A stretch of 64,000 bases of DNA from contig JAFGNV010000181.1 of the NCBI GenBank assembly GCA_016926805.1, positions 101,564 to 165,563 of the forward strand, written 5' to 3'. Position 1 is the first letter of the stretch. Each line of letters starts with the position of its first letter. The notes below the pieces were generated by a model. The model made no database searches. It saw nothing but the letters and a program-made list of their open reading frames with translations, and had not been told where the DNA came from. The DNA is from Anaerolineae bacterium (lineage in GTDB: Bacteria; Chloroflexota; Anaerolineae; 4572-78; J111). A program made the translations under genes and the position numbers. This document shows, in pieces, positions 29,337 to 64,000 of the stretch.

Positions 29337-29914
29337 GCGTATTGCCCCTCAATAACCTCTGCCATTACTGTGACTGATGTTAAATTTCAATATTGTGAGA
29401 AACCCCGGAAAAAATTTCTGGGACTTCCGAACGCTCTAACCGGGGTTTCTCCAAGGAGAAGCCGATCAAATCACTTGATGGACAAAAGCCGTTGTCCTTC
29501 ATCCTCTTGATAAATCAGTGTCGCTTTCTCGGCTTCTCCCGTAAGGGATGGGGTACCCCGGTTAAATAGACTGACGCAAAACGTGTGATTACCCACCCAG
29601 ATAATCGTGATGCCCAAGTATAGCACATTTGTTCTTTTTGCGCTACTTTTTTGGTGGTTAACATACTTAAAATTATTATGAATTGGCCAGATTTGAAACA
29701 AAAACGGTCATACTAACCGGCCATTTTGTTAAACTGATCCCATACCAATTCACTTTTCCGCCGACTCTTGGTATAATCGAGCAGGGTTTAACAATTCTCT
29801 TGGGTGGGAGATCAACCACGCTACTTCACTTGGAGTCAGGCCGGTCATCCGGCATTGTCACAACCTGGGCCTTCTCGCGGACTCTCCTCAAGTTGGATTC
29901 CGGGAGTCGCACCA

Positions 29915-39196: not shown

Positions 39197-40312
39197 TTAT
39201 GAGCCAGCCGATTGGGGCGGCTTCTGGAACAAGTCGGCAAAGGAGGGGTGACCGGCTTGCCGGCGGGGTTCGGTCGAATCTCCAGTTTCTTGAGTCAACG
39301 GTGGTCGAGTTGGATAGACTGCCAGGGGAGGAACATCGAGGGGGTCGTCGGCCTGTTGTGCCAGTTGCGCCTGGACGTCGGCGAGTGCTCGCGATTGGGC
39401 CAGCCGGTAGCCGTTCAAGCCAAACAGCATTGTATTGATGTTGGCCATCTGCCGCAGCAGGGGATCGGTGGGTTCCCAGACCACACGGACCAGAGCGCTC
39501 TCTAACGCCCACGCTGGAAACTGCGCGGCCGCCGCCAGCAGCATCGCACTGGAGTCAACCAGCGGCGGCCCGACCAGCAGCGGCTCGGCATACGGCAGAA
39601 CGGCCTCATACCATTCGGCGAAATTGTCGCCGGGTTCCGGCGTAAGCGCAACCCCGGCGCGGTGGGCCTTCAGCCCGGCGTACACCAGAACCGTGTTGGC
39701 TTGCTCTGCGCCATCGGGAATAGCAGCCTGGGCCGCGATCAGACAGTCGGCCCAGGAGTCGCCAAAGAACGGGGTCCATCTGGCCGGGAAATCGAGACAG
39801 GTCAGAAACACCTGGCCGATGACGTTGGGATTGAGGTCGGTTTGTTGACCGTAGTGGGCCAGGCCGGGTGCGGCGCTGTCCAGCAGCAGGGCAAAGGCTT
39901 CGCTAAAGGCAGCCTGCATCTGGCGATAAACGGCCGGATATTGGGCCGAAGCGCGCAGATACCGCTCTCTGGCCCGGCTGAAGATGGCCTGGATGTCGGG
40001 GGGGTCTTGGGCAAACTGGCCGGTAGCCGTCAGCGCCCGCCATTGCTCCGGCCACATCTTTAAGCCACTTTCCAGCATCCCCAGCCAATCTTTCAGTAGC
40101 GTGATGATGGGGATAGTTGACGTGGCCGCCATCTGCCGGATGAGGTGGGCGATGACTTGCACATATGGGTTGTCTATCTGTGCGGGAACAAGCGTAGGTC
40201 GGTGGGGAACCGGCCTGGGCTGGTCTAGCGGGGCGGGGAGTCTTCGCGTGGCAGGTGGGGAATGGGTGCTTGGATTCGTCGTCGCACGACGGCGTTTGTG
40301 TTTTTTGCTCAT
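39197..40312 (-). CDS. Paralogue of 35498-36553: methyltransferase-like, further eroded
   Basis: GPPLVDSSAMLLAAAAQFPAWALE...MANINTMLFGLNGYRL parallels DPAIGSSILNLAAASLMPAWMVK...LSRSSAMLYGLNSYAL. Confidence 0.5.
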   Translation of the reverse strand: MSKKHKRRRATTNPSTHSPPATRRLPAPLDQPRPVPHRPTLVPAQIDNPYVQVIAHLIRQMAATSTIPIITLLKDWLGMLESGLKMWPEQWRALTATGQFAQDPPDIQAIFSRARERYLRASAQYPAVYRQMQAAFSEAFALLLDSAAPGLAHYGQQTDLNPNVIGQVFLTCLDFPARWTPFFGDSWADCLIAAQAAIPDGAEQANTVLVYAGLKAHRAGVALTPEPGDNFAEWYEAVLPYAEPLLVGPPLVDSSAMLLAAAAQFPAWALESALVRVVWEPTDPLLRQMANINTMLFGLNGYRLAQSRALADVQAQLAQQADDPLDVPPLAVYPTRPPLTQETGDSTEPRRQAGHPSFADLFQKPPQSAGS

Positions 40313-40608
40313 CGTTCTTTCTCCGGCAGGTCACGATTTTGCTTGTGTTTGAACAGGTCGGCGAAGGATGGGTCAACCGGTGGCGGCGGCGACCGCTTGT
40401 TCAACGTTATCTCCACCACCGTCTTGCCGGCTTCATCCGTAACGTGGGTCAACTGGTGCTGGCCGGGCAACGTCTTGACCATCGCCGCCATTTGCTGAAC
40501 AAACTCCAACGCCAGATCGCGGTTGATCGCCAACCGTTCGTGCAGGAGCGGCGGCCCGCCGTTCTTGCCGGTGACGGTGATTTCGATGTTTGCTTCAGGC
40601 TGTGCCAT
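40309..40608 (-). CDS. Small PRTRC-cassette protein, unknown
   Basis: Overlaps both neighbours; C-terminus PSFADLFK shared with 39197-40312. Confidence 0.5.
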   Translation of the reverse strand: MAQPEANIEITVTGKNGGPPLLHERLAINRDLALEFVQQMAAMVKTLPGQHQLTHVTDEAGKTVVEITLNKRSPPPPVDPSFADLFKHKQNRDLPEKER

Positions 40609-41830
40609 CGGTCACCGCCTCGTTTTCCGGGATCAAGGCGTACCATTCGCACTGGAGGCAATTGAGGACCGGCACGGGCCGGCCATTGCCCTCAAAATCA
40701 ACCACATCCTCGCCAAGCTCCCCGCCGCACTCGGGACAAACTTCCTCCCGCCAGGGACACGCGGCGCAGAAGCGCACCGCAATCAAGACGCCCCGGTACT
40801 CGTCCTGCCCGGCAATGATCTCGCCGCCACAATCGGGACAGGTTTCGGCCATTTCCTCCGGCGCGGCGGCTCTGACCGGGATGTGTTGGGGCCGTTCGGG
40901 CAGCACCAACCGCCCGCCGGTGATGGGGATACTCTTGGTCATACCGGTTTGAAGATTCACCCAGGAGCCGGACCAACCCAAATCTCGACTTTGTAGCAGG
41001 CGGTACAGGTACACGCCCACCAGCGTGGCCATCATCCGGTTGATCATGGCACTCTGTTCGCCCCGCAAGTTCAGGTCGGCGCAGCTCAACTCTTGTTGGA
41101 GATGATCTCGCTCCAACAGCAAACTCGGTTCCTGAAGGTGGGGTAGCGGCAGGCCGAGGCAGTAGCCCAGCGGCGAGAGCAGCGGTTCCGGCTCCAGGCT
41201 GTTGCCGATCAAGACCTGGCCGCTCAGCCGCTCGTTGCCGGCGTCCAGCCAGAAGAACTTGTGTTGGCTGCCATGCTGTTGTTTGAGTTTGGCCGTGATG
41301 GCCTCGGCCATTTTGCGCCGGGCGCAAACATTGTCCACCGCGCCGATGACGATGGTCAGCGTGCCCTGGGGAGAGTAAGCCGGTTGGAAACGATCCAGCA
41401 ATTCTGCCGAGAATTGTTCCACCACCGGGGTGATGGTCAGGCCAAAGGCCGCGGTGTAACGCCAGGCCAGGCTGAAGGCCTTGGGATAGCCGACCTCGGC
41501 GGCACAGAAATTCTGGCGCACCAGGTTCTTTTCCTCAATGATATCGTGGTCCACAAAGTAGAGCCGCAGGTCAATCCCGGCGCTCCTGGCCCAGTTGGCC
41601 AACTGAGCCAGGATGTGGGCCACGAACGCCCCTGTACCGCCACAACCTATCAACAAAATGACCACCCGATCAGGATGGCCGATGTCGAGGCGATAGGTTT
41701 TGTGAGGACTGAGGGGGCGGGGTAGTAAGGGGGGAAGCAACCGTCGGTAAAGACGCTTTAGAAGCGTGCGGCCTTGTTGACCAACGTACAATGCGAGTTG
41801 TTTGAGATAGAGCCAATAGGGTTGCATCAT
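40595..41830 (-). CDS. PRTRC-type ThiF/E1-like protein with C-terminal tandem zinc ribbons
   Basis: VILLIGCGGTGAFVAHILAQLA, FVDHDIIEEKNLVRQNF; CPDCGG..CAAC and CPECGG..CLQC. Confidence 0.85.
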   Translation of the reverse strand: MMQPYWLYLKQLALYVGQQGRTLLKRLYRRLLPPLLPRPLSPHKTYRLDIGHPDRVVILLIGCGGTGAFVAHILAQLANWARSAGIDLRLYFVDHDIIEEKNLVRQNFCAAEVGYPKAFSLAWRYTAAFGLTITPVVEQFSAELLDRFQPAYSPQGTLTIVIGAVDNVCARRKMAEAITAKLKQQHGSQHKFFWLDAGNERLSGQVLIGNSLEPEPLLSPLGYCLGLPLPHLQEPSLLLERDHLQQELSCADLNLRGEQSAMINRMMATLVGVYLYRLLQSRDLGWSGSWVNLQTGMTKSIPITGGRLVLPERPQHIPVRAAAPEEMAETCPDCGGEIIAGQDEYRGVLIAVRFCAACPWREEVCPECGGELGEDVVDFEGNGRPVPVLNCLQCEWYALIPENEAVTDGTA

Positions 41831-42513
41831 TTCCTCCAGGGTAACAGATTTGTTAGCCAGCCGTCCTCGATAGTGGGGGCAAAGGGTGCCGGTTCGCCGG
41901 GGTCAACGTAGACCTGGACAAAAGGGCCAAGATCATCAAAGATGGCTTGGGCCGGCACGTTGGCCAGCCAGTGGCCGTGCATCCCTAATCTCAAGACCAA
42001 CTCCGGCTGCGCTCGTTCTAGGTGGCCGATGACGCCGTAAAATCTTCCGCCCATTTCGTCTCGATCATCCGTGCCGGAGAAAAAAGCCGGCATCGTATTG
42101 TGCGAGTGAATCTCTACGGCGACCCCGGTCGGGTCGGCAGTGTAACCGAGCCAGGTTTTGCCGCGTTCCTGCCGAGGGCGAATGACGGCCCACCGGTTTT
42201 GGGCCGGGTCAAAGCGGAATTGGTAGAGTACTTCCAGTTCCAGGTTTTGCCGGGCGTCGGCCAGTATGTCTTGCAGCAAGCGGCCGGGAATGCGCGGCAG
42301 TTTGAAGCGCACCGGCGGTAAGGGATACGTCGCCAGCCGCAGGCCGGTCAGTGAGACGTCAAGGGGCGCCAACAGGTGGTCGGCGGAAACAAACGGCGTC
42401 TCCAGGCGCTTTACGATGCCCTGCGCGGAGAGGACATAATCATACAACCGTTCGGGCCGGGGCAAGGGGTTGCCCTGATACAGGTAGATGGGGATCAAGT
42501 TTTCATTGAACAT
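41827..42513 (-). CDS. PRTRC protein A-like JAMM/JAB metalloprotease
   Basis: EIHSHNTMPAFFSGTDDRDE = HxHx(7)SxxD. Confidence 0.85.
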   Translation of the reverse strand: MFNENLIPIYLYQGNPLPRPERLYDYVLSAQGIVKRLETPFVSADHLLAPLDVSLTGLRLATYPLPPVRFKLPRIPGRLLQDILADARQNLELEVLYQFRFDPAQNRWAVIRPRQERGKTWLGYTADPTGVAVEIHSHNTMPAFFSGTDDRDEMGGRFYGVIGHLERAQPELVLRLGMHGHWLANVPAQAIFDDLGPFVQVYVDPGEPAPFAPTIEDGWLTNLLPWRK

Positions 42514-43249
42514 GGATCAACCTCCGTAGGGTGAAATGAGTTTCGATTAGATCGTCCAGGGGATAGACGTCGGCATTGGCCTGGTGCAGCGCCTGCCACT
42601 GGTCGAGGATGCAATCGGGGTAGGCTTTGCTTTTGTGGTTGGACAGGTCGCGGTTGAACTTGCTGCTGAAAAAGATGTCCAGCGCGTGCCAGATGGTGGT
42701 CGCACTGGCGCGGGGAAAGGGCGCGCTGCCGCGACAGACGCCTTGAGGATGGACGTTGGGGCAGGGGGCCAGGTACAGCGGGGTGTCGGCGCCGGTGGGT
42801 TCATCCTTCACCGCCCATAAGCCGTAGTCGTAGTCGTGGCCGGTGAAGACCAGGCCGGGCAGCGGCACCCGCCAGGCCTCTGTTTCGTCCCGCACGCTGA
42901 CCAGCCAGACCTGGGGCGGCACGAAAATCCCCAGCCGGTCGGCGCCGTGGTGTTTGCCCCAGAAGAGGCAGTGGCGGGGCAGCAGGCCGGAGTTAAGGTC
43001 CAACCCGGCCAGGGTCGCCGCCAATTCGGTGGGATCAACCAGGTGACAGGCGGACACCTGGCCTTGCTTGAACTTGGAAAGTATCACAAAATCGTCATAC
43101 AAATCCAGGCGAACCTGGAGTTGGGCATAGTCGGCTTCGCCCCACTGGAGAGCCGGGTAGATCAGGTCGGGAATAGCGGTCGGTTCCTGAGGTAGGTGAG
43201 GGGGAGAAGCGTGGGGATTACCATGCAAGGTCATGACAATTACCTCCAT
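42503..43249 (-). CDS. PRTRC protein B-like (E2-like fold)
   Basis: TPLYLAPCPNVHPQGVCRGSAPFPRASATTIWHALDIFFSSKFNRDLSNHKSK; order next to JAMM and ThiF. Confidence 0.78.
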   Translation of the reverse strand: MEVIVMTLHGNPHASPPHLPQEPTAIPDLIYPALQWGEADYAQLQVRLDLYDDFVILSKFKQGQVSACHLVDPTELAATLAGLDLNSGLLPRHCLFWGKHHGADRLGIFVPPQVWLVSVRDETEAWRVPLPGLVFTGHDYDYGLWAVKDEPTGADTPLYLAPCPNVHPQGVCRGSAPFPRASATTIWHALDIFFSSKFNRDLSNHKSKAYPDCILDQWQALHQANADVYPLDDLIETHFTLRRLIHVQ

Positions 43250-44096
43250 TCATCAAAAAATCGGCCAGTTGCGCCAGGCGGCCGTGATCCTGTTCGTACC
43301 ACGCCAGCAGTCGATCCAATACCTCGATCACCGGTTTGGCCCGCCGCCAGGCGGTTTTGAGCTGCTCCACGTCAGGCTCCCGCCAGGTGAACCACGGTCC
43401 TTCCCGGTAGGGGTCGAAGTGCTGATCCAGCATCACGTTGCCGGTGCGATGGCCGGCCCAGCGGGCCAACTCCGGCAGCCAACGCACCGGCTCGGCATAC
43501 CGGCCCGGGTCGGCCTCGATCTGCTGCAACAGCCTCCAGGCCGACTCGCGCTCCTGCGGCGTCCACTCGTCCAGATGGTCGTACAACTCGCTGTCGATGA
43601 GCAGTTGGGAACTGACGGCGTGGATTTCGCACTCGGCCAACAACGCGTGCAGCAGTTCCATCGGCGGGCAGTCGAACAGGGACTCGGTGTCGGTGAAGCC
43701 GTACAGGGTGACCGGAACGTAATGTAAGAACACGGCCAGGTGATCGCCCCGTTCTTCATCCGGATTCTCCATCCAGTGGGACCAGGCATCGTTGAGCACC
43801 GGCCAGTTGATGGTGAACCAGTCGGCTTCTTCGACCAGGTTGGCCAGGTGAGCGAGTACTTCCCACCAACCTTTGCCGGATAGATCGCCGTCGTCGGCCA
43901 GCGCTGCCGGAAAGTACTGCTCGATGAGGCGCAGTCCCCGGCCCAGCCGTTCGTACTCGCCCAGGCGATATTGGAAGCCGGTCAGGGTGACCGGCCGCAG
44001 CCGCCCCAGCCAGGCCCGGGGACGGATCACCTGGCCCGGTTGGGTCAAAAGCCCAGCGGAATCTTTGGATGGGGTATCGGCGTCAGTTGTAAACAT
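43218..44096 (-). CDS. PRTRC protein F-like
   Basis: Operon position; GPWFTWREPDVEQLKTAWRRAKPVIEVLDRL. Confidence 0.5.
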   Translation of the reverse strand: MFTTDADTPSKDSAGLLTQPGQVIRPRAWLGRLRPVTLTGFQYRLGEYERLGRGLRLIEQYFPAALADDGDLSGKGWWEVLAHLANLVEEADWFTINWPVLNDAWSHWMENPDEERGDHLAVFLHYVPVTLYGFTDTESLFDCPPMELLHALLAECEIHAVSSQLLIDSELYDHLDEWTPQERESAWRLLQQIEADPGRYAEPVRWLPELARWAGHRTGNVMLDQHFDPYREGPWFTWREPDVEQLKTAWRRAKPVIEVLDRLLAWYEQDHGRLAQLADFLMNGGNCHDLAW

Positions 44097-44842
44097 TGTT
44101 GTCCGATCCTTTGGCTGGTCGTGGCGATACGTTCGGCCTGGTGCAGCGCGCTCTCGATCTCCGGGGTCAGCGCCAGCAGATGGCTGACGCTGAAGGCCTG
44201 CTGGTCGTCGGTTTCCATAGCCCTGATCCGGTCGAGCAGGGTGATGGCCTGCAACTGGGTGGGAGGCAGTTGGTTCAGGCAGGCTACCAGTTGGCGCGGC
44301 GCGACACCGCCGCCCTTTTCGCCGGTGACTTTGACGAAGGTGATCTCCTCGGTACCATCCGGTAGGGTGCGCGTGTGCCAGGTGCCGTTGCCGAGTTCGG
44401 GATACGTCATTGCCAGGAAGTCGAGCACGTCTTGCGCCGAATATTCCGGGCCCGGATCGGCAAAGACCTGGCTATCGTACAAAAAGACCCGCCGGTAGGG
44501 AGAGTGGTTATCTGTAGGAGCTGGCAGCAGCGGCGGGCTGTCAGATGGCAGGTCGTAGATGGTGACCTGGCCGCCCTTTTCGCCGGTGACTTTGACAAAG
44601 GTGATCTCCTCGACGGCTCCAGCCGGGCCGTCGGGAATGGTGCGGCTGTGCCAGGTGCCGTTGCCGAGCTCGGGATAGGTCATCGCCAGGAAGTTGAGCA
44701 CATCCTGCACCGAATACTCCGGCCCCGGGTCCTCAAAGACCTGGTTGTCGTACAAAAAGACCCGCCGGGGGGCGGGTCGGTCTGGGGCGGAGGCCGAGGA
44801 AACCTGGCCTTGTGCTGGTTGATCAAAAAAATCGGCTTGCAT
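44045..44842 (-). CDS. Tandem PRTRC protein C-like (ubiquitin-like) domains plus C-terminal extension
   Basis: RRVFLYDNQVFEDPGPEYSVQDVLNFLAMTYPELGNGTWHSRTIPDG...EEITFVKVTGEKGG occurs twice (44570-44767 and 44309-44494). Confidence 0.85.
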   Translation of the reverse strand: MQADFFDQPAQGQVSSASAPDRPAPRRVFLYDNQVFEDPGPEYSVQDVLNFLAMTYPELGNGTWHSRTIPDGPAGAVEEITFVKVTGEKGGQVTIYDLPSDSPPLLPAPTDNHSPYRRVFLYDSQVFADPGPEYSAQDVLDFLAMTYPELGNGTWHTRTLPDGTEEITFVKVTGEKGGGVAPRQLVACLNQLPPTQLQAITLLDRIRAMETDDQQAFSVSHLLALTPEIESALHQAERIATTSQRIGQQCLQLTPIPHPKIPLGF

Positions 44843-44903: not shown

Positions 44904-45338
44904 TTACTGGCCGGCGCCGTCCGCACCGGGCACGGGGTTGGCGATGACGGTTTCAGCCGTCACCGGCGCGGTGGCGATGATGACCGGCGTGGCTTTGCGG
45001 AACAGCCGACTCAAGGAACGCTGGAAGCGAACCGCCAGACTTAATACTTCGTGCCGCCACAGGTAGAAGGTCACCACGCCGCCGGCCAGAAAGGATAGGG
45101 CGACTAAGGCCACGATAGACCAGATGAGGCGGCGCTGATGACGGATCAACCAGGCCTTCAGCCGGGGCCAGCGAACGATGACAGGATGTAAAACCCAGCG
45201 AAACGGCGCCGTCAGCAGGCGGAGGACCGCTTCGCCCAGGCCGACCAGGCGGAACCAGAGATACAGGGCTAAACCTTGTACATAAAATAGGCCGATGTGG
45301 GGTCGGCGTTGTTCCGAGGTGGTTGTTTGGGTATTCAT
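44904..45338 (-). CDS. Membrane protein of the element (ATG 45338)
   Basis: Hydrophobic segment WSIVALVALSFLAGGVVTFYLW. Confidence 0.6.
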   Translation of the reverse strand: MNTQTTTSEQRRPHIGLFYVQGLALYLWFRLVGLGEAVLRLLTAPFRWVLHPVIVRWPRLKAWLIRHQRRLIWSIVALVALSFLAGGVVTFYLWRHEVLSLAVRFQRSLSRLFRKATPVIIATAPVTAETVIANPVPGADGAGQ

Positions 45339-45603
45339 TTTTACAGTTCCTTTCTTTAATAATATGGTTTGGATTGAATGTTTGGGTGAGTTGACTGAAT
45401 ACGAAACGTAGAGTGGGCGATAGACATCACCTCCTTTGGCGAAAAAGCATTTGTGACAAAGTAAAAAGGCGGAGGACACACGACACCACCTGATGGGGTT
45501 CGGACAGTCTCCGCTGAAATATTTGATTGGGTTTTGAGAGCAATGTGGGAGACTTCAGACCAGTCCTTGCGAAGAATGACGATAGCCTGACAGGAGAGGA
45601 ACG

Positions 45604-45936
45604 TTACCGGATTGGATTCACAATGCGTCGATAGGCCAGCAGAGTACTGATGATGACCGGCACGAACAGCAAGGGCAGCAGCAAAAGCCAGGCCCAGGCG
45701 TGAGGTCTGGTTGTATTGGCCTGGGTAGACTCAGCGCGTGGGTGACGATAAAGAACGTCGGCGATTTCATCCGGCAGCCAGACCACGGCGCCGGGACTGG
45801 TCAGATCGGCTTCCGCTTGCCGGAAGGCGCTGGCCCAGCGCCGGTTTTGAGTGACGGCCACCTCGTCGTCAAGTTCGGTTTGCACCTGACGCAGGGCGTC
45901 TTTCCAGTACAGTTTCTCACTATTTTGGTGGTTCAT
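45604..45936 (-). CDS. Small C-tail-anchored membrane protein
   Basis: C-terminal TM AWLLLLPLLFVPVIISTLLAY. Confidence 0.55.
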   Translation of the reverse strand: MNHQNSEKLYWKDALRQVQTELDDEVAVTQNRRWASAFRQAEADLTSPGAVVWLPDEIADVLYRHPRAESTQANTTRPHAWAWLLLLPLLFVPVIISTLLAYRRIVNPIR

Positions 45937-45937
45937 T

Positions 45938-46609
45938 TCAGCCTCCGTTGATCATTTCACCGGCGGCCACCGGCACCGGTTTTAACAGGGCTTGGTATTC
46001 CAACGGGAACATCAATTGCAGCCCGGTCAGGGGGCGTTGGTGCTTGAGCGCAATTTGGGCAGCATAGGCCAATAGATGGCGGGTGTTCTCGCTGATCTGG
46101 TAATGCGGCGGCAATGCCGCATCGGTGATGTTGGCGTTTAGGGCAAAGTCGTGCCAGGCGGTGATCATTTCCCGGTGTTTGATTTCCAGGTCTTCCAATA
46201 CCTGAATCAGCGGGGGGTACAGCAGGCTGGCTTCCCGACACATGGCTTCTTTCAGGTCGGCGGTCGGGCCGTTCAGCCACTGATAATTGCCGTGTTCGGC
46301 GCTGCGCCGATCCCCGCCGAATTGAGCCATCAATGCTTTGAGCCGGCCTGCCGAACCGGCGCAATGAGTCAGCCAGAACTGCTCGCGGTTGTATCCGTTG
46401 AAGTCACAATAGGTCACCAGGTAGCGGTGCAGTGTTGGCGTAAAGAACAATTTCTTACAGCCGTTGAGTAGGAATTGTTGCCAGTCGTGCAGCACCTGCC
46501 ATTTGTCGGCGGCAGACATGGTGACGGCTTCGCCACGATTGGGGATGATGATTTTTTCATCGGTGAAAGTGTAGGCTTCATTATTAATGAAGGGGATATG
46601 GATATTCAT
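45938..46609 (-). CDS. Hypothetical element protein
   Basis: ORF at head of the minus-strand operon. Confidence 0.55.
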   Translation of the reverse strand: MNIHIPFINNEAYTFTDEKIIIPNRGEAVTMSAADKWQVLHDWQQFLLNGCKKLFFTPTLHRYLVTYCDFNGYNREQFWLTHCAGSAGRLKALMAQFGGDRRSAEHGNYQWLNGPTADLKEAMCREASLLYPPLIQVLEDLEIKHREMITAWHDFALNANITDAALPPHYQISENTRHLLAYAAQIALKHQRPLTGLQLMFPLEYQALLKPVPVAAGEMINGG

Positions 46610-46881: not shown

Positions 46882-47043
46882 ACTTCATTGGTGGGCGAGG
46901 AAGACGCCCATTCAGGTGAATGACCACCAATCATGCACACTCGAAACGTTCGCAGGCAAATTCATAACCTGACGTCGGACATCGGTAGTATATTTGTGAC
47001 TTGCTGACCGCATCGCTCATTATTGGACGATGCGGTTTTTTTT
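46882..47043 (+). ncRNA. Candidate structured small RNA with own terminator
   Basis: No ORF; ATTGGTGG/CCACCAAT stem enclosing two hairpins; terminator follows. Confidence 0.5.
47007..47043 (+). terminator. Strong Rho-independent terminator
   Basis: ACCGCATCG ctcattattgga CGATGCGGT TTTTTTT. Confidence 0.85.
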
Positions 47044-48202
47044 AGGCGATCTCGATTGATTCACCGAGGGGGTGTTGGTCTGTTTGCTGCGAGGCGACAA
47101 TAATGGCCCGGTGCTGATGAGGATAATAGATAGCCACCCAGCACGCCCGTCGATAAAAAAGGGCCAGGCCGGTGTAGAGCCAGGTGGGTAATTTGCCGTC
47201 TAGAATCACCCCATGAGTTGACGGAACTGGGGGCAGGGAAAGAGACAGTTCCGGCTCATATTCCAGATAATCAGCAGGTAGGTCCACTTTTAAATGAAGG
47301 TAGTGTTCCGTTTGTTCGGTAGTAAGCGCGAGTGATGATTTTATGGGGCGAGCGTCGACAAAAATGACCGGTTCAACCCAACCACGGCGGGCATCGAATT
47401 GGTAAAAAGGGTTGGGGGAAATGTAGCCCGCTATCGCGGCATATAACCAGGCCGGACCTCGTCCATACAGCGCCAGCGGAGTATCTTGGGGAAGATAATC
47501 GAGAACAGGTGGAATGTCATCAGGATGCCACCGGTAGCCTGAACGGGAGGGATACAGCTGCCGGTAAAGACGAACCAGATCAACCACCAGATCAGTGGGT
47601 GCTTGCTGTTGGTGGATGTTCAATAGCTCATCATAGCTGTAATTGCAGAGGGCTTTTATACGTGTCACCAAAGCCTCAAATACGGATCCTTCAACCAGTT
47701 GACCCCGTTCCAAATTGGTAATAACTCCCTGCAAGATAGGATACTCAACTTCTAACTCAGATTGACCAACCAAACGCGACTTTAAGATAGCAATGATCGG
47801 CACGTGATATTTTTCCATCATTGCCTGCCAATAAGTTTCTGATTCGGCGTCTTTGACCAGCAAGACGGCGTGACTGCACAGATCAAAAATATCTTCCTGC
47901 CACGATTCTGGTTTGCCGCCAACATCGACCAGAAAAGGGAGAGGGCGGTAAGCAATGTCGCGACACATTTGCTTGACCCAGGTTGGCGTGAATTTTCCTT
48001 TGCGTCGCTCGGTTTCGGCCACAGCGGGAGGGGCCTCGTGAAACCAATCACCCTCACCATCAGGGGCAGCTCGTAGTAAATAATGTTGAATACCGGCCTT
48101 GGTCAGGGCTTCTTTTAGGCTGCGGGCCAGCACCGATTTTCCGGCGTGGGGTGGCCCACCAATGAGAATGGCTGGAAAGCGACTGGTAACTCTATTGGCC
48201 AT
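47042..48202 (-). CDS. P-loop ATPase fused to C-terminal Csx3 (Crn3)-like region, apparently two Csx3-like modules (ATG at 48202 preferred over 48361)
   Basis: GGPPHAGKSVLARSL; LALYGRGPAWLYAAIAGY and GVILDGKLPTWLYTGLALFYRRACWVAIYYPHQHRAIIVAS. Confidence 0.8.
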   Translation of the reverse strand: MANRVTSRFPAILIGGPPHAGKSVLARSLKEALTKAGIQHYLLRAAPDGEGDWFHEAPPAVAETERRKGKFTPTWVKQMCRDIAYRPLPFLVDVGGKPESWQEDIFDLCSHAVLLVKDAESETYWQAMMEKYHVPIIAILKSRLVGQSELEVEYPILQGVITNLERGQLVEGSVFEALVTRIKALCNYSYDELLNIHQQQAPTDLVVDLVRLYRQLYPSRSGYRWHPDDIPPVLDYLPQDTPLALYGRGPAWLYAAIAGYISPNPFYQFDARRGWVEPVIFVDARPIKSSLALTTEQTEHYLHLKVDLPADYLEYEPELSLSLPPVPSTHGVILDGKLPTWLYTGLALFYRRACWVAIYYPHQHRAIIVASQQTDQHPLGESIEIA

Positions 48203-48260
48203 TAGATGTAGCTCGCTTTCTATAATGAGCCGATGATTTTGATGGCGACAGGATGGACCT

Positions 48261-49145
48261 ATGGATAGGAACCACGGCTCTATAATGATTGCCACCCTGG
48301 GGGGACAACCCCAGTTGGTGACATTTGCCCTGGATGAACTGCTGGCGCGGGGTGAGAACATTCATGAAGTGATTGTGCCCTTTCTATCTGCCGAGGGCAG
48401 CCGGGTCAATCGTGCCCTGGACAGGCTCTCGGCAGAGTTTGTCGGCGACTACTACCTTCACGCTAACCATCCCTGTCGCTTGCGGCCAATGCCCATTCGA
48501 GATGAGCTGACCCGTTTGCCGGATATTCAAACCGAGGCCGACGCCAACGCCACCTGGGAAATGCTGCGAGACTTGATCATCACCTTAAAGAACGAACGCC
48601 AGCAACTGCACGTGTGCGTGAGTGGGGGGCGGCGGGTGATGGCGCTGGTGTTGGTTTCGGCGGCGTTGCTGCATTTTAATTACCAGGATAAAATGTGGCA
48701 TATTTACACTCCCGAGGCTTTTTTGGAACAGGCGCAGGAGGGCGCCATGATGCACGCCCGCCCCGAAGATGGCGTGCGGTTGATCCAGGTGCCCCTGGTG
48801 CCGCTGGGCACGCAGTTCCCCATTTTGCGCCAATTGGCCCAGGCCGAGTACGCGACCTTGTTACAACCGGACTCGCTGAAGAAAACCGAACAGGAGCCGT
48901 GCCAGGCCGTGTGGGCGCAATTGAGCTTACGGCAGCGAGAAGTGCTGCGTTTGCTGGCCGACGGCCAGACGCCCCAAGAAGTGGCCGATACGCTGGCTAT
49001 TTCCATCAAAACACTCGATACGCATAAGACCGCCATTTTGGCCGAGTGCCGGGTGGCCTGGGGCCTGCCGGATGACCATTGGCTGGATTACCACTTTTTG
49101 CGAGACAATTTTGGTCCGTTCCTGAGATTTAAGGATAACACATAA
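48261..49145 (+). CDS. CARF (Csx14/NE0113-like) protein with C-terminal LuxR-type HTH
   Basis: MIATLGGQPQLVTFALDELL, LHVCVSGGRRVMALVL; LSLRQREVLRLLADGQTPQEVADTLAISIKTLDTHKTAIL. Confidence 0.8.
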   Translation: MDRNHGSIMIATLGGQPQLVTFALDELLARGENIHEVIVPFLSAEGSRVNRALDRLSAEFVGDYYLHANHPCRLRPMPIRDELTRLPDIQTEADANATWEMLRDLIITLKNERQQLHVCVSGGRRVMALVLVSAALLHFNYQDKMWHIYTPEAFLEQAQEGAMMHARPEDGVRLIQVPLVPLGTQFPILRQLAQAEYATLLQPDSLKKTEQEPCQAVWAQLSLRQREVLRLLADGQTPQEVADTLAISIKTLDTHKTAILAECRVAWGLPDDHWLDYHFLRDNFGPFLRFKDNT

Positions 49146-49155
49146 TTAATTAAAA

Positions 49156-49185
49156 AACATCAGAGGTATCTCTGATGTTTTTGGG
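49156..49185 (+). terminator. Terminator/attenuator between CARF-HTH gene and cas10
   Basis: AACATCAGAG gtat/ CTCTGATGTT TTT. Confidence 0.75.
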
Positions 49186-49249
49186 AGGGATTTCTGATGC
49201 AAAATGCGTCATAATCAGATACGATATTATAGACAAGAGAGGAGGTTGT

Positions 49250-51811
49250 ATGCGAGAAGTTGTATTCAAAATAGCTTTAGCCGGACTGTTGCACGATATT
49301 GGTAAGTTTGCTCAACGGCGAGAAGTAAGGTCCAGAAAACACACGATAGTAGGTGAAGAAGTTTTACAGGAAGTGTTTTCTTCGCTGGTACCGTTTGATT
49401 GGCGAGATGATCTTGGAGATGTTATAAAATTTCATCATTCTGACAAAAAAGAAGAAACCGGCAAACCAATCGTCAAAGCCGTTATTGTGGCCGACTGGCT
49501 GGTCTCGGCCGAACGGTTAAGCGGCCATCCTGAACAGAGCGCCCCGGAAGTTACCGGCCTAATCCCTGTAACGGCCACAGTTGAACTGGACAGGGAATAT
49601 CAGGTTACAGGTTGGAAATTTCCATTGCGAGCATTAACTATTGCCCCTGAAGTAGATACTCCTCCCATTTTTCCAAAACAGGGTATTGAAGTGGGGCGAG
49701 ATGATTATATAAAGCTCTGGTCGCAGTTTACAGAGGCCATGCAATCCTTCCCCTCCCCGATAGATACTTACAGCCGTTTTACCGGCTTAATGAGTACCTT
49801 GCGGCTCTACACCACTCAAATTCCTTCGGCTACGCCCTGGAGTGATGAGAAACATAAAGACAAGCGCACCGTGCCGGATGTATCTCTATATGACCATCTC
49901 AAAGTAACGGCGGCTATTGCCCCCTGTTTGCTGCGCCTGCCAGGCGAGCATCCTGACCATCTGGAAGAATTGCATCAGATGAGGTCGCCTCGAATTTTTG
50001 ACGACACCCGCCCGGTTGCTCAACTCCTGCGGGCCGACCTGTCCGGCATCCAATCTTTTATTTACCGCATCGTTACCCCGGAGCGCGATAAATCCCATCG
50101 CTCCACGGCCAAACGACTACGGGGACGCTCCTTTTATCTTAGTTTGCTCACTGAGGTGATCGCTGATTGGTTTCTGCGTGAGTTGGATTTGACCCCAGCC
50201 AATGTTCTTTTTATTGGCGGGGGACGGTTTGACCTGCTGCTGCCGATAGATCACAAAACTGGCGAAAAGGTACACAAACTTCAACAGGATTTGCAGGAGT
50301 GGCTGGCCGAAAAATTCTACGGCACGGTGGGGCTGGTGCTGGCCTGTGAGAACCTCTTGCCCGGCGACTTTAGAGACCTAGGCCGGGCGACAGCGACCCT
50401 GGACAAAAAACTGACGGCGGCTAAACAGCAAAAGTTCAGCGGGGTTCTCAATGAAGCGTTCTTTATCCCAGAAAAATTCAAGCACGTTTGTGATGTTTGC
50501 GGCTTGACCCCCACTCAGGCAGGTAGCCCAACTTGTGATTTGTGCAAGCTTCATTTAGAAATAGGACAATCGCTGCCCCGCGCAGCTTACCTGGCCCGGC
50601 TCTATAACGCCCAACCCTTGAAGACTTCCAAGACGGCCTGGATAAAGTTTGCCGAACCGTTAAATGTGCAAGTGGCCCTTTTAAAGAGTGAAGCGCAGGT
50701 AGAGGAACTGCTGGCCAAGGTTGACCAGGCCGGGGTCGAGGCCGTTATTTATAGCCTCAATGATACATCTTTGTCCCCGGCGATAAAGTGGCCTGCCCAA
50801 ACCGCCCCGGCCCAATTCTACCTGGCCAACGCTGCTCCGTTACATCCCGATGATCAGGTCTTTAGCTTTGAAGATTATGATGACCGCGCCGCAGAGATTG
50901 TTGAGGAACTCTTACATCCCGATGGTCAGGTCTTTAGCTTTGAAGAGATGGCCGAACTCAGTGTTGGAACAAAACTATTAGGCGTGCTGAAAGCCGACGT
51001 GGACCACCTGGGCTTGATTTTTAGCCTGGGGTTGGCGCCGCTGACTATTTCTCGTACGGCTGCGCTCAGCCACATGTTTGACCACTTTTTTGGCGGCTAC
51101 TTGAACACCCTCTGCCGGAAATTGACAATAAGGTGGCAGGAGGATTTAGCCAAAAACCAGGAGCGCAAAGCTGACCTACAGCAAGCCTTGCAGAAACTAC
51201 GCCAGGAGAGCGACGAGGATGGCCCGGTCAATCTGGACCGCCTGGACAGCCTCTTTTATATCGTCTACGCCGGCGGCGACGACCTGCTCATCATCGGTCC
51301 CTGGGACCAGACCGTTGAACTGGCGCAACAGCTTTACCGGGATTTTCGGGTTTATACCTGTGAAAATCCCAACATTACCCTCTCTGCCGGGATTACCCTG
51401 GTTAAGCCGCATTTCCCGGTGCAGCGCTTCGTGGAACTGGTTGGGGAGGCCCTGGAACAATCCAAAAACAAGGGACGCAATCGCCTGACCCTGTTTGACC
51501 AGACGGTCCTCTGGCGCGATGAGGGCGCAACCAGCTTTGATGAGCTGCACCGGCTGGCCCGCGACCTGTATGATGATGCGGGCCAGATACCCCGCACGCT
51601 GATCCACGATATGCTGCGACTGCGCAAGCAGCAAGAACTCAAAATGCGTAACGGCAAGACCAAACCCATTATCGCGCCTCAACTGCTTTACCTGTTTGCC
51701 CGCCGCCTGCCGGTTGAGGTGCGGGAAAAATACAAACGGCGGCTGCTGGATGCCTGGCCCGGCATCCAGATTCCATTATCTTATGTGAGTTTAAAAACAA
51801 GAAAGGAGTAA
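49250..51811 (+). CDS. cas10: Type III-A Cas10/Csm1 (ATG at 49250, SD GGAGG)
   Basis: HD LLHDIGKFAQR; zinc finger CDVCG...CDLC; palm motif FYIVYAGGDDLLIIG. Confidence 0.95.
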   Translation: MREVVFKIALAGLLHDIGKFAQRREVRSRKHTIVGEEVLQEVFSSLVPFDWRDDLGDVIKFHHSDKKEETGKPIVKAVIVADWLVSAERLSGHPEQSAPEVTGLIPVTATVELDREYQVTGWKFPLRALTIAPEVDTPPIFPKQGIEVGRDDYIKLWSQFTEAMQSFPSPIDTYSRFTGLMSTLRLYTTQIPSATPWSDEKHKDKRTVPDVSLYDHLKVTAAIAPCLLRLPGEHPDHLEELHQMRSPRIFDDTRPVAQLLRADLSGIQSFIYRIVTPERDKSHRSTAKRLRGRSFYLSLLTEVIADWFLRELDLTPANVLFIGGGRFDLLLPIDHKTGEKVHKLQQDLQEWLAEKFYGTVGLVLACENLLPGDFRDLGRATATLDKKLTAAKQQKFSGVLNEAFFIPEKFKHVCDVCGLTPTQAGSPTCDLCKLHLEIGQSLPRAAYLARLYNAQPLKTSKTAWIKFAEPLNVQVALLKSEAQVEELLAKVDQAGVEAVIYSLNDTSLSPAIKWPAQTAPAQFYLANAAPLHPDDQVFSFEDYDDRAAEIVEELLHPDGQVFSFEEMAELSVGTKLLGVLKADVDHLGLIFSLGLAPLTISRTAALSHMFDHFFGGYLNTLCRKLTIRWQEDLAKNQERKADLQQALQKLRQESDEDGPVNLDRLDSLFYIVYAGGDDLLIIGPWDQTVELAQQLYRDFRVYTCENPNITLSAGITLVKPHFPVQRFVELVGEALEQSKNKGRNRLTLFDQTVLWRDEGATSFDELHRLARDLYDDAGQIPRTLIHDMLRLRKQQELKMRNGKTKPIIAPQLLYLFARRLPVEVREKYKRRLLDAWPGIQIPLSYVSLKTRKE

Positions 51812-51817
51812 CAGAGT

Positions 51818-52246
51818 ATGACTATCACCACTATCCCTGACTTAGAAAAAAAGCTTAAAGATGAAAAAGGACCTCTATCGGCCATATTATCGCCCCAGGA
51901 TTTTGCCGATGAGGGCGCGGTAGCCGATGTGATGGCCCAGAAGTTCAAGAAAGATCTGAATCCTACTCAGATGCGTAAGGTTTTTCATGCCTTCAAGCAA
52001 ATTGAGCGCAAACTCAAAGGCAAGCCGGATGGCGATAATCTGGACGGGTTTCGGGCAGAGATCAGTTTGATTACGCCCAATCTGGCTTATGCTGTTGGGC
52101 GGAAATTGATGCCTCCCGAATTTTATGACGTGTTAAAGCTTTGCCTTAAACCGGATAAACTGCAAACCGTAGGCGACTTCAGACGGCTCACTGAATTTCT
52201 GACCGCCATTCTGGCCTATCAAAAGTATTACAGCAAAGGAGACTGA
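51818..52246 (+). CDS. csm2: Csm2 (Cas11)
   Basis: Small helical protein between cas10 and csm3; NPTQMRKVFHAFKQIERKL. Confidence 0.88.
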   Translation: MTITTIPDLEKKLKDEKGPLSAILSPQDFADEGAVADVMAQKFKKDLNPTQMRKVFHAFKQIERKLKGKPDGDNLDGFRAEISLITPNLAYAVGRKLMPPEFYDVLKLCLKPDKLQTVGDFRRLTEFLTAILAYQKYYSKGD

Positions 52247-52252
52247 AAACTG

Positions 52253-53032
52253 ATGACCACGCAATGGAAATTTTTGGGTAAATATATTCTGCAAGGCAAA
52301 ATCCACTGCCAAACCGGCCTGCACATTGGCGGCAATACCGAAGGCTTTGAAATTGGCGGGATGGATAACCCGGTGGTTGTTAACCCGCTCAATGACCAGC
52401 CCTATATTCCCGGTTCATCGCTTAAAGGTAAGTTGCGGCATTTACTTGAATGGAACCTGGGAAAAATAGAGAAAAAGAACCCGGATAAAGAAAATGAAAC
52501 CTATGGACCGCATTTTTGTGGCAAATGTGAAGCCTGCCGGATATTTGGGCCAGCCAATAACGAGGCCGATGTGCGTGAAATGGCCGGACCGACCCGCCTG
52601 TCGGTACGCGACTCTTTTCTAACCAGTAAGAGCGTTACCGAATTACCGCAATGGCTGGGGGAAGGTATTTTTACCGAAGCCAAAACTGAAAACGCAATAG
52701 ATCGTGTAACCGCTGTCGCCAACCCCCGTCCCATCGAGCGCGTGCCGGCCGGGGCCGAATTTGATTTCACCGTCATCTTTGACGTTTATCGGGAGGAGGA
52801 TCGCGCCCTGCTGAAGCATCTCTTTACCGCAATGGCCATGCTGGAAGACAGCGCCCTGGGCGGCGGCGGCTCGCGCGGTCACGGCGTAATTGCGTTCAAA
52901 GAATTAAAAGCCGAATGGCGTTCGGTTGAATATTACCGGAACGGCACATCGGCCAAACCTGTTTCGGTTATTGAGAAAAAGGCTATGAAACAAATCGTTT
53001 CTGACTTTAAGGTGGAAGATTGGAAGGTATAG
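52253..53032 (+). CDS. csm3: Csm3 (Cas7)
   Basis: TGLHIGGNTEGFEIGGMDNPVV, YIPGSSLKGKLRHLLE, GGGGSRGHG. Confidence 0.95.
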   Translation: MTTQWKFLGKYILQGKIHCQTGLHIGGNTEGFEIGGMDNPVVVNPLNDQPYIPGSSLKGKLRHLLEWNLGKIEKKNPDKENETYGPHFCGKCEACRIFGPANNEADVREMAGPTRLSVRDSFLTSKSVTELPQWLGEGIFTEAKTENAIDRVTAVANPRPIERVPAGAEFDFTVIFDVYREEDRALLKHLFTAMAMLEDSALGGGGSRGHGVIAFKELKAEWRSVEYYRNGTSAKPVSVIEKKAMKQIVSDFKVEDWKV

Positions 53033-53035
53033 GCC

Positions 53036-54160
53036 ATGGACACCTACCTGATATTGCTCCAGCCCAGAGGTGCGCATCTTGGCTCCATCACCTCGCAAAA
53101 GCTGTTTGGGGCCATGTGCTGGGCGCTGGACACGCTGGGCATGGTCAATGTGGGCGACCTATTGGCCGGTTTTAGCCAGAACCCTCGCTTTGCTTTTAGT
53201 TCGGCCTTCCCTTTTGTGGTCAAGCCGGAAGCGGCAGCCAAAAATCCGGACAATCTCGGCCCCGCCGACATTATTCGCCTGTTCCCCAAACCCCTCCTGC
53301 CGCCGATAACAATGGCCCAGGTACAAGAAATGGCTAAAGCAAGTGGGCATACCGGCATCCACTTTAAACGGGCCATTAAAGAGATTGTGTCCGAACAGAT
53401 TAAGCCGGTACAGCAGGCAGCTTATGTGTCGGAAGGGCTGTTTAACGGCATTTGCACCGGGGAATGGGATCATGCAGCTCTGGCAAAAGAAGTGAGACAA
53501 AAAGTAAAAAAGGTTGGCACAGCGCTGTGGCTGGATAAAGAATACCGGCAGATTTGGGGACGAACCGGCGACCCGGGAAACCTGTGGTCTACCACCGACG
53601 TGCAGCGCAATGCCGTAGACCGGGTCGCCGGTTCTACGGCGGAAGGGCTGCTCTTTCACGAGACACAGACACTTTATCAGTCGGAGCGGGTGGGCCTGTG
53701 GTTTGCTGCTCGCGTCGATGCCGAAGCCTGGGGCTGGCTGCAAGCCGCCTTTCGCTACCTGGCCGACACCGGCCTGGGCGGCAAACGTACCACCGGCAAA
53801 GGCCACTTTGACTTTCACTGGCAGGCAACGCCCAACTTGCTGCCGGACGCGCCCGACGCGGACAGTTTTGTGACCCTATCTCACTACGTGCCGAATTTTG
53901 AGCAAGGACAAATTGAAGCCCAACCCCAGCGATACACGTTGAAAGTAACGCGCCAAAAAGCAGAAAATAAATTTCCGGGCCAGGAACAGCGAGTTTACAT
54001 CGGCGGCCTTAAATTTTTTACCGAAGGCTCGGTCTTTGAATTTCGACGAAAACAGGCCATTTACGGCAGTTTATCCAGGTTGGATGAAGTTAACGGCCGC
54101 GCGGTCTATTACAATGGCATGGCCGTGCCAGTGTTTGCCAGGTTAGGAGGCGACGTATGA
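53036..54160 (+). CDS. csm4: Csm4 (Cas5)
   Basis: Order; YLADTGLGGKRTTGKGHF. Confidence 0.92.
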   Translation: MDTYLILLQPRGAHLGSITSQKLFGAMCWALDTLGMVNVGDLLAGFSQNPRFAFSSAFPFVVKPEAAAKNPDNLGPADIIRLFPKPLLPPITMAQVQEMAKASGHTGIHFKRAIKEIVSEQIKPVQQAAYVSEGLFNGICTGEWDHAALAKEVRQKVKKVGTALWLDKEYRQIWGRTGDPGNLWSTTDVQRNAVDRVAGSTAEGLLFHETQTLYQSERVGLWFAARVDAEAWGWLQAAFRYLADTGLGGKRTTGKGHFDFHWQATPNLLPDAPDADSFVTLSHYVPNFEQGQIEAQPQRYTLKVTRQKAENKFPGQEQRVYIGGLKFFTEGSVFEFRRKQAIYGSLSRLDEVNGRAVYYNGMAVPVFARLGGDV

Positions 54161-55689
54161 GGTATGAACCTAAGCCGATACCAATTGAATTTAAGACAGC
54201 CAGCCCGGTTTTTGCCGGAAATGGCGAGACCATTCAGCCACTCTCTTTTGTGGCCGACAAGAAATGGGTCTACATGGTGGACGAAAACCTGTTCTTTCAG
54301 CAAGCATTGTCGGAACAGGGGCGAGTATTGTTCTTGTCCTGGATAGACCCTATTATGGAACAGATGGCGCAACTAAATGAAGAGATGGAAAAGCTAGACA
54401 GGTTTGACGAACGTCGGCGTCCGTTAAAAACTAAGCAGCGCAATCTGGAGGCGCGTTTATCTATTCAAAATTTTGTGCAGGAAAAAATGCCAACCCTGGA
54501 TGCGGTGCAGATAATCAAAACCAGGGGATGTGTAGCTTATCAAGTGCAAACACAAACCAATCTGGATCACAATGGTTTCCGGGCCTGTTGTAAAGACGTT
54601 GAAAACAGACCCTATTTGCCTGGTACCGAGATTAAGGGCGCTCTGCGTACCGCCTGGCTGTTTGCTTTGCTGGAGGATGAGAATAATTATCGCCTCCTGG
54701 CGCAGGCTATTCAAGACTTGAAGCCAATAGCTAATAATTATAAAAAGATTGAAAAGAGATTACCCGAGGTGATTGATACCATTGAAGCAAGGCTCTTGCG
54801 CGGGCGAGAAAACGATGCCAAGTATGACCTGCTGCGCCTGCTGCGGGTGAGCGACAGCGATCCATTTGATCCGGGCTGGCTACGTTTGGAACATTCCAAA
54901 TCGGCGGGAACCAGAAAATTTACAGACACGGTTTTGGAGACACTGCAACTACCAGATGAGCAATCCGGCCAATTTCGGCTGGAAGTGGTGGCGGACCAGC
55001 CTGAACTGTTGAACAAATTAGGCTTCAAACAGTCTATCAGCCTGGCAGCCCTGATGGAAGCTTGCTACAAACATGCGGCGGCTATCCTGGAAACCGAAGC
55101 GGCTTACTTTGACCGGCAAGGGGAGCGAGAACTGACCCACCGGGCTGACGCATTGGCTCAAAAAAACACGCCTCAAACCCCGTTGCTGCGTTTGGGCGGG
55201 GGACAGGGTCTGCTTTCTATTACCGCCGATTTGTGGCTGGCTACTCGTGATCCTGAAGTGTACGAAATATTCCGCCAGGCGGTCAGCACCATGCGCAAGT
55301 GGAAAAACACCGTGCCGGGCAATTTTCCCAAAACCCGCCGGGCAATCTGGCGCAATGGCCGACCGGCCGATCTTTTGGGCTGGCTACAACTCTTTCCGCC
55401 GGAAGCGGCGCGAAGCCATGCTCCAGCCAATTTCAAATTTGAATCAGCCGCAATTTCAGTCACCCCCAAAACGGTTGCGCCGGTCAAACAAGGCCGCCAG
55501 ACGGGTCGAGTGCAACAATTTAATACAACCAAAGGGTATGGTTTTATCAAACCCGATAGCGGCGGCGAGGATGTTTTTGTGCATGTTTCTGATGTGGATG
55601 GACCACCCTTGCAAAAAGGCGAAAAGGTCAGTTTTATGGTTCAAAGGGGTGGAAAAGGTTGGCAGGCCAAAGATGTCAGGCGTGGCTAA
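54157..55689 (+). CDS. csm5: Csm5 (Cas7-like) with C-terminal cold-shock domain
   Basis: PYLPGTEIKGALRTAWL; C-terminal GRVQQFNTTKGYGFIKPDSGGEDVFVHVSDV...GEKVSFMVQRGGKGWQAKDV. Confidence 0.92.
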   Translation: MRYEPKPIPIEFKTASPVFAGNGETIQPLSFVADKKWVYMVDENLFFQQALSEQGRVLFLSWIDPIMEQMAQLNEEMEKLDRFDERRRPLKTKQRNLEARLSIQNFVQEKMPTLDAVQIIKTRGCVAYQVQTQTNLDHNGFRACCKDVENRPYLPGTEIKGALRTAWLFALLEDENNYRLLAQAIQDLKPIANNYKKIEKRLPEVIDTIEARLLRGRENDAKYDLLRLLRVSDSDPFDPGWLRLEHSKSAGTRKFTDTVLETLQLPDEQSGQFRLEVVADQPELLNKLGFKQSISLAALMEACYKHAAAILETEAAYFDRQGERELTHRADALAQKNTPQTPLLRLGGGQGLLSITADLWLATRDPEVYEIFRQAVSTMRKWKNTVPGNFPKTRRAIWRNGRPADLLGWLQLFPPEAARSHAPANFKFESAAISVTPKTVAPVKQGRQTGRVQQFNTTKGYGFIKPDSGGEDVFVHVSDVDGPPLQKGEKVSFMVQRGGKGWQAKDVRRG

Positions 55690-55710
55690 ATCCTGAGATA
55701 AGGAGGCATT

Positions 55711-56700: not shown

Positions 56701-56759
56701 ACCAATACCCAGCCTGCCCTTGGGGTGGGTGTTGATGGAATTAAAGGATCGGAGGCAGC

Positions 56760-63897: not shown

Positions 63898-64000
63898 CGT
63901 ATTCCCGTGACTTGCGTCCGACGACAACTATAATTACACTGATGACAATTAAAAATGCCCACTAGAAAAGTTGGTGCAAGATCAGTACACTAAATCCCCA

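What the first reader, a model, noticed from the sequence alone, without database searches (positions are those of the whole stretch)
44309..44767. Tandem ubiquitin-like (PRTRC protein C-like) domains in one polypeptide, each ending in VTGEKGG: a candidate bacterial polyubiquitin-like precursor
The 265-aa ORF holds two near-identical domains (RRVFLYD[N/S]QVF[E/A]DPGPEYS...TYPELGNGTWH...EEITFVKVTGEKGG) separated by a 25-aa linker. Known PRTRC-C proteins are, to my knowledge, single ubiquitin-like domains. JAMM, E2-like and E1-like genes follow in the same operon. The GG endings plus a JAMM protease suggest processing into monomers, or a dimeric modifier. A C-terminal extension follows the second domain.
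Basis: partly seen in the sequence, partly recalled or inferred. Interest (0 to 1): 0.8.

Follow-up and report, generated by a model that had tools for sequence, protein, structure and literature searches.

The report
Bacterial tandem ubiquitin-like precursor
A bacterium of the Chloroflexota (Anaerolineae) makes two near-identical ubiquitin-like proteins joined in one chain, next to genes for the enzymes that would cut, activate and attach them; this looks like a small bacterial version of the polyubiquitin gene, in a gene cassette whose other known members carry only one copy.

Summary
The 265-aa ORF (44842-44045, minus strand) carries two PRTRC_C/Prok_Ub domains, 88% identical, each ending VTGEKG, then a C-terminal extension. 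It heads a PRTRC / Iyer type-6d cassette: Ubl, helical protein, E2-like, JAMM, E1-like. Catalytic motifs are intact. A MAG of the same family, another genus, has an orthologous tandem, so it is not an artefact: its linker is 35% identical, but both domains are 82-88% identical and both tails unchanged.

The invariant terminus is a single Gly ([K/R]G), the exact C-terminus of many relatives. Among 66 cassettes with context, all 51 with residues after this Gly encode the JAMM. All 8 without a JAMM end exactly at the Gly, yet keep E2 and (where readable) E1 cysteines. This supports JAMM as the maturation protease, so the internal EKG is probably a second cleavage site.

Best reading: a di-Ubl precursor cut by the JAMM into monomers (about 0.6). 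An uncut ISG15/BilA-like di-Ubl is the main rival. Tandem bacterial Ubls are known in other operon types (6e polyUbl, BilA), so this is a new variant of a known kind. Nothing was tested biochemically.

The parts
44045..44842 (-). tandem PRTRC_C / Prok_Ub protein, 265 aa (di-Ubl precursor)
   Evidence: orthologue in L039
44573..44767 (-). Ubl domain 1, aa 26-90, ends VTGEKG; carries a 4-aa insert (PAGA) shared with domain 1 of the orthologue
44573..44575 (-). Gly90 codon: inferred internal JAMM cleavage site (EKG|GQVT)
   Evidence: invariant Gly across family; inference
44495..44572 (-). linker, aa 91-116, predicted disordered, 35% identical to orthologue
44312..44494 (-). Ubl domain 2, aa 117-177, ends VTGEKG
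   Evidence: AF2 single-domain pLDDT 87.9, beta-beta-alpha-beta-beta
44312..44314 (-). Gly177 codon: inferred second JAMM cleavage site (EKG|GGVA)
   Evidence: inference
44048..44311 (-). C-terminal helical extension, aa 178-265, ending PKIPLGF; 59% identical to orthologue
43218..44096 (-). helical protein of the cassette (position of PRTRC_F / the alpha-helical protein of type 6d); overlaps the Ubl gene by 52 nt
   Evidence: no Pfam or NCBIfam match
42503..43249 (-). E2-like protein (Prok-E2_D / PRTRC_B), conserved VCRG cysteine
41827..42513 (-). JAMM/JAB protease (PRTRC_A), motif E plus HSHx7SxxD intact
40595..41830 (-). E1-like (PRTRC_ThiF) with SCAD cysteine and C-terminal zinc-ribbon cysteines
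40309..40608 (-). 99-aa protein, conserved downstream in G007 and L043
39197..40312 (-). 371-aa protein, conserved in G007
44904..45479 (-). 191-aa upstream protein, conserved upstream of the tandem in G007
45604..45936 (-). 110-aa upstream protein, conserved in G007 (and G007 C568 copy)
45938..46609 (-). 223-aa upstream protein, conserved in G007, L040 and L043

Best explanation
The gene encodes a precursor of a ubiquitin-like modifier: two copies of the PRTRC-C Ubl in series plus a C-terminal cap. The JAMM protein of the same operon is inferred to cut after the conserved Gly of each copy (Gly90 and Gly177), releasing two conjugation-ready Ubls and the cap. The E1 adenylates the exposed Gly and carries it on its SCAD cysteine, the E2-like protein takes it on its VCRG cysteine, and it is attached to a still unknown target; the JAMM may also remove it. 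Doubling the Ubl doubles modifier dose per enzyme in a tightly overlapping operon. Shown by sequence: the tandem, intact motifs, purifying selection on both domains and tails, and the JAMM/tail association. Inferred: cleavage, conjugation, target and dose.
For: Gene order Ubl-helical-E2-JAMM-E1 is conserved from Chloroflexota to a betaproteobacterial plasmid and a Burkholderia phage. E1 Cys is present in 75/75 and E2 Cys in 82/82 covered sequences; the JAMM HxHx7SxxD motif is intact. The terminal [K/R]G is present in every full-length Ubl found, and is the exact C-terminus in many. Of 66 cassettes with context: JAMM+ with residues after Gly 51, JAMM+ ending at Gly 7, JAMM- ending at Gly 8, JAMM- with residues after Gly 0. 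Fisher p = 1.1e-6 by locus, 0.023 by 60%-identity cluster. JAMM absence was checked over whole replicons. In the tandem orthologue, domains 1 and 2 have saturated synonymous sites (third-position identity 0.39), yet both tails are FVKVTGEKG, while the linker is only 35% conserved. There is no internal start codon in the linker, so domain 2 exists only as part of the precursor. The tails and linker are predicted disordered. An archaeal JAMM (CsRpn11) is shown to cut its Ub precursor after the Gly (PMC6043591).
Against: No biochemistry. Only two tandem genes are known, from one duplication. The internal site might be sterically uncut; BilA and ISG15 keep two Ubls joined. In the window itself the two tails are almost identical in DNA, so gene conversion may add to their likeness there. 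JAMM-less systems could borrow a host JAMM. The C-terminal extension is itself conserved (ends P.PLGF), so it may not be a mere throw-away cap.
Confidence: 0.6

Rival explanations
1. ISG15/BilA-like di-Ubl: the JAMM trims only the C-terminal extension after Gly177, and the two domains stay joined and are conjugated as one double modifier.
For: BilA is described as two consecutive Ubls trimmed by a JAMM (PMC11354881). The 26-35 aa linker differs from direct head-to-tail polyubiquitin.
Against: Domain 1 keeps the whole tail VTGEKG in both genomes while the following linker drifts. The two domains are near-identical, which a specialised double modifier would not need.
Confidence: 0.25
2. Domain 1 is a non-conjugated docking or avidity domain that binds E1, E2 or JAMM; its tail is kept only because the same surface is recognised or by gene conversion.
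For: A 43-nt stretch at 98% identity in the window suggests recent homogenisation; G000 d1/d2 dS 0.47 against 0.77 between orthologous d1.
Against: In G007 the two copies are not homogenised (72% DNA identity), yet the tails are identical in protein.
Confidence: 0.1
3. The cassette does not conjugate; Ubl and E1 work as a sulfur carrier or in another non-conjugating role, and the tandem is incidental.
For: ThiS/MoaD/ThiF-type systems use the same chemistry (established knowledge); the target is unknown.
Against: An E2-like protein with an invariant cysteine and a JAMM accompany it, with no sulfur-metabolism genes alongside; the position in plasmids and phages does not suggest a biosynthetic pathway.
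Confidence: 0.05

Closest known systems
PRTRC cassette (NCBIfam TIGR03735-03738) = Iyer et al. 2006 operon type 6d
   Same: Same gene order C-F-B-A-ThiF, same Ubl family, same E1/E2/JAMM families (PMC1779556)
   Different: Described as a small standalone single Ubl; here tandem plus extension. A, B and ThiF score below NCBIfam cut-offs; the adjacent genes gave no NCBIfam match to ParB or protein E
PolyUbl of operon type 6e (Iyer et al. 2006)
   Same: Two to three Ubl domains in one protein beside an E1/JAB gene (PMC1779556)
   Different: A different Ubl family; E1 fused to JAB; inactive E2-like fold; repeats described only as similar, not near-identical
BilA of Bil (BilABCD) anti-phage systems
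   Same: Two consecutive Ubls, JAMM maturation, E1 and E2 (PMC11354881)
   Different: BilA resembles ISG15 and is used as one unit; gene families differ
Eukaryotic polyubiquitin (UBB/UBC, UBI4)
   Same: Near-identical head-to-tail units each ending in the reactive Gly, with extra residues after the last unit
   Different: Here two units, a 26-aa linker and an 88-aa cap; the end is KG; the putative protease is a dedicated JAMM; not homologous at sequence level
Archaeal CsUb/CsRpn11
   Same: A JAMM cuts a Ub precursor after Gly to remove a tail (PMC6043591)
   Different: Single Ub with a 9-aa tail

Membership tests
PRTRC protein C (TIGR03738 / PF14454) | Ubl domain above curated cut-off | tested here: met
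   68.9 bits against 45.95; PF14454 76.3 against 25; two stretches
PRTRC protein C (TIGR03738 / PF14454) | single Ubl domain per protein | tested here: not met
   two domains; all other surveyed members have one
PRTRC protein C (TIGR03738 / PF14454) | conserved terminal Gly | tested here: met
   KG in both domains
PRTRC / type 6d cassette | gene order C-F-B-A-ThiF | tested here: met
PRTRC / type 6d cassette | A, B and ThiF above NCBIfam cut-offs | tested here: not met
   A 53.8/101.8, B 57.4/131.45, ThiF 119.6/144.75 bits: significant but divergent
PRTRC / type 6d cassette | ParB and protein E next to C | tested here: not met
   adjacent genes without NCBIfam match; present in Cupriavidus plasmid, not annotated beside C in the Polaromonas plasmid either
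PRTRC / type 6d cassette | E2 Cys plus conserved downstream His | tested here: inconclusive
   Cys invariant; the downstream His is not conserved in the closest relatives
PRTRC / type 6d cassette | JAMM catalytic motif | tested here: met
   Glu and HSHx7SxxD
PRTRC / type 6d cassette | JAB-N domain with conserved Arg and Trp | not tested
   the JAMM has an N-terminal region of suitable length; residues not mapped
beta-grasp (ubiquitin-like) fold | beta-beta-alpha-beta-beta topology | tested here: met
   AF2 pLDDT 87.9
beta-grasp (ubiquitin-like) fold | significant structural match to a solved Ubl | tested here: inconclusive
   no match at E <= 0.001; the better TM-scores (0.44-0.55) include PB1, EccD5 and BAG1 Ubl folds
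polyubiquitin-like precursor (works like) | proteolysis after each unit | not testable with these tools
   indirect: JAMM/tail association

The most novel reading that the evidence does not exclude
A polyubiquitin gene analogue that arose independently in bacteria: a mobile-element Ubl conjugation cassette that increases modifier dose by in-frame duplication, with each unit released by a dedicated JAMM after a single Gly.
Probability: 0.5. Interest if true: 0.65.

Novelty: new variant of a known kind. Interest (0 to 1): 0.52.

Why it matters
PRTRC cassettes are widespread on megaplasmids (126 Pseudomonas records) and occur in Burkholderia phages and prophages, yet no function is on record in the papers searched here. 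The tandem form and the JAMM/tail association give a sharp, cheap prediction: the JAMM is the maturation protease and cuts after a single Gly. The same prediction tells which homologues can be used mature as encoded. If the tandem is processed, it is an independent bacterial polyubiquitin.

Tried and rejected
Assembly artefact: rejected, because a diverged orthologue exists in another MAG. Internal start giving domain 2 alone: none in the linker. Foldseek of the full-length model: uninformative; of the single domain: no significant match. Solved structures by sequence: none for the Ubl or the JAMM. IMG/VR search with the Ubl alignment found none, but the phage E1 query found 47. PADLOC: only weak E1-E2 matches for the E1 and none for the other four core proteins, so no link to a catalogued defence system. 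Link to the neighbouring type III CRISPR: rejected, not conserved in G007. Literature: 'PRTRC' with 'ubiquitin-like' gives no held paper. Gong et al. 2025 (Structure) on multi-domain bacterial Ubls is not held; from memory it reports bacterial Ubls with one to three beta-grasp domains.

Full report
OBSERVATION. The ORF at 44842-44045 (-) is 265 aa. Pfam Prok_Ub (E 1.6e-21) and NCBIfam PRTRC_C (68.9 bits, cut-off 45.95) each match it in two stretches. The domains span aa 26-90 and 117-177. They are 88.5% identical in protein over 61 ungapped residues; the DNA shows a 141-nt direct repeat at 86% and a 43-nt one at 98%. Domain 1 has a 4-aa insert (PAGA). An 88-aa extension follows domain 2. The one correction is the end motif: the second Gly of 'GG' is S in the tandem orthologue and T in the next single-domain relative, while the Gly after K/R is invariant.

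GENE CONTEXT. Downstream, mostly overlapping, lie a helical protein (292 aa), an E2-like protein (Prok-E2_D / PRTRC_B), a JAMM (Prok-JAB / PRTRC_A), an E1-like protein (PRTRC_ThiF with C-terminal zinc-ribbon cysteines), and 99-aa and 371-aa proteins. The order Ubl-helical-E2-JAMM-E1 recurs in other Chloroflexota, in a Polaromonas and a Cupriavidus plasmid annotated as PRTRC, and in Burkholderia phage BgVeeders33. It is operon type 6d of Iyer et al. 2006, described there with a small standalone Ubl with a C-terminal Gly, a helical protein, an E2 with a conserved Cys, a JAB and an E1 (PMC1779556). The window's A, B and ThiF fall below the NCBIfam cut-offs: a divergent member.

ACTIVE SITES. JAMM: Glu plus HSHx7SxxD present and conserved. 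E1 Cys in SCA[DE]: 75 of 75 covered sequences. E2 Cys in xCxG: 82 of 82.

IS THE TANDEM REAL AND SELECTED? A genome of the same family but another genus (G007; the same contig as MAG HKST-UBA12, JAGRBZ010000002.1) has the orthologous tandem (284 aa) with the same neighbours on both sides. Between the two proteins, domain 1 is 88% identical, domain 2 82%, extension 59%, N-terminus 52%, linker 35%. Both domain 1 copies share the 4-aa insert. In G007, domains 1 and 2 agree at only 39% of third codon positions, yet both tails read FVKVTGEKG. A tree of concatenated E2, JAMM and E1 groups the two tandem loci (bootstrap 98), with single-Ubl loci L043 and L040 branching next. So there was probably one duplication, kept by selection in both copies. 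Some local homogenisation in the window is likely (dS 0.47 within, against 0.77 between orthologous domain 1). L043's single Ubl gene carries frameshifts, probably sequencing errors, but holds only one copy.

HOW COMMON? Tandem Ubls occur in 2 of 91 ORFs surveyed (1 of 16 clusters at 60% identity). 47 viral contigs with a related E1 were fetched, and every Ubl found in them is single. A PRTRC-C search gave 199 places in 196 plasmid records; two of the records with an extra place were opened and each shown locus has one C gene of 69-76 aa. In the class sample, 18 of 396 genomes have the family; in the phylum sample, 7 of 400.

FOLD. AlphaFold2 gives beta-beta-alpha-beta-beta for each domain. 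The single domain has pLDDT 87.9. The full-length model has pLDDT 62, with the tails and linker (87-114, 174-185) below 50, that is, flexible. Foldseek finds no significant match; the better TM-scores (0.44-0.55) include PB1, EccD5 and BAG1 Ubl folds. The fold is compatible with a minimal beta-grasp, not proven by structure search.

DOES THE JAMM PROCESS THE Gly? The family offers a natural experiment. Many members end exactly at [K/R]G; others have 1-100 residues after it. Among 66 cassettes with enough context, JAMM+ with residues after Gly: 51; JAMM+ ending at Gly: 7; JAMM- ending at Gly: 8; JAMM- with residues after Gly: 0 (Fisher p = 1.1e-6 by locus; 0.023 after clustering at 60% identity). 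The JAMM-less cases come from Pseudomonas, Deinococcus and Tunicatimonas plasmids and a Chloroflexota chromosome. No PRTRC_A exists anywhere on those replicons, and no Prok-JAB on six of the seven plasmids. They keep the E2 Cys, and the E1 Cys wherever that stretch is covered. Thus residues after the Gly are tolerated only where a JAMM is present, as expected if the JAMM removes them. Relatedness inflates the locus-level p value, and a host JAMM in trans cannot be excluded.

MECHANISM. With the JAMM as maturation protease, the internal EKG of domain 1, identical in sequence, flexible, and conserved before a drifting linker, is most simply a second site. Products would be Ubl-1 (aa 1-90), Ubl-2 (91-177) and an 88-aa cap. 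No start codon lies in the linker, so domain 2 cannot be made alone. Precedent: archaeal CsRpn11 cuts CsUb precursor precisely after Gly-Gly (PMC6043591). Rivals are an uncut ISG15/BilA-like double modifier (0.25), a docking domain (0.1), and a non-conjugating role (0.05).

COMPARISON. Tandem bacterial Ubls are known: polyUbl (two to three domains) in type 6e operons (PMC1779556) and BilA (two Ubls, JAMM-trimmed; PMC11354881). What differs is the family (6d/PRTRC, otherwise single), the near-identity of the two units, and the preservation of both tails. Hence 'new variant of a known kind'.

LIMITS. All evidence is from sequence and structure prediction. The cassette's biological role and target are unknown.

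Noticed in passing
window 48261-57647 and 61496-63900: Type III-A CRISPR locus: CARF/Csx1, Cas10, Csm3, Csm4, a RAMP protein with cold-shock domain, Card1-like CARF protein, and an array of about 31 repeats (GATGAAATAGACTGAAAGCTCGGAGGAGCATTAAGAC) running to the contig end.
   Followed up: partly
window 47042-48361 (-): AAA-Csx3 fusion (C3a67) beside the PRTRC cassette; not conserved beside the cassette in G007.
   Followed up: partly
window 58737-59732 (+): Reverse transcriptase near the CRISPR locus.
   Followed up: no
window 29804-35335 (+): 1843-aa nSTAND1 NTPase with WD40 propellers, a possible defence or signalling protein.
   Followed up: no
window 21700-23448 (-): Large serine recombinase; may belong to an integrated element that includes the cassette.
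   Followed up: no
L065, L119, L120, L121: Pseudomonas megaplasmid PRTRC cassettes lack the JAMM gene and have a 70-aa Ubl ending exactly at K/R-Gly.
   Followed up: yes
L066-L112: 47 IMG/VR contigs (relatives of Burkholderia phage BgVeeders33) carry related E1 genes; those with a Ubl found have a single Ubl, mostly with a C-terminal extension, and a JAMM.
   Followed up: partly
L040 (G007 contig C568): The tandem-bearing genome G007 has a second cassette with a single Ubl plus extension.
   Followed up: partly
L043 8001-8181: Single Ubl gene in MAG H5_CFX7 broken by frameshifts, probably sequencing error.
   Followed up: partly
window 44048-44311: The C-terminal extension ends in P.(V/I)PLGF in many Chloroflexota Ubls, within the overlap with the next gene; why this end is conserved is unexplained.
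   Followed up: no
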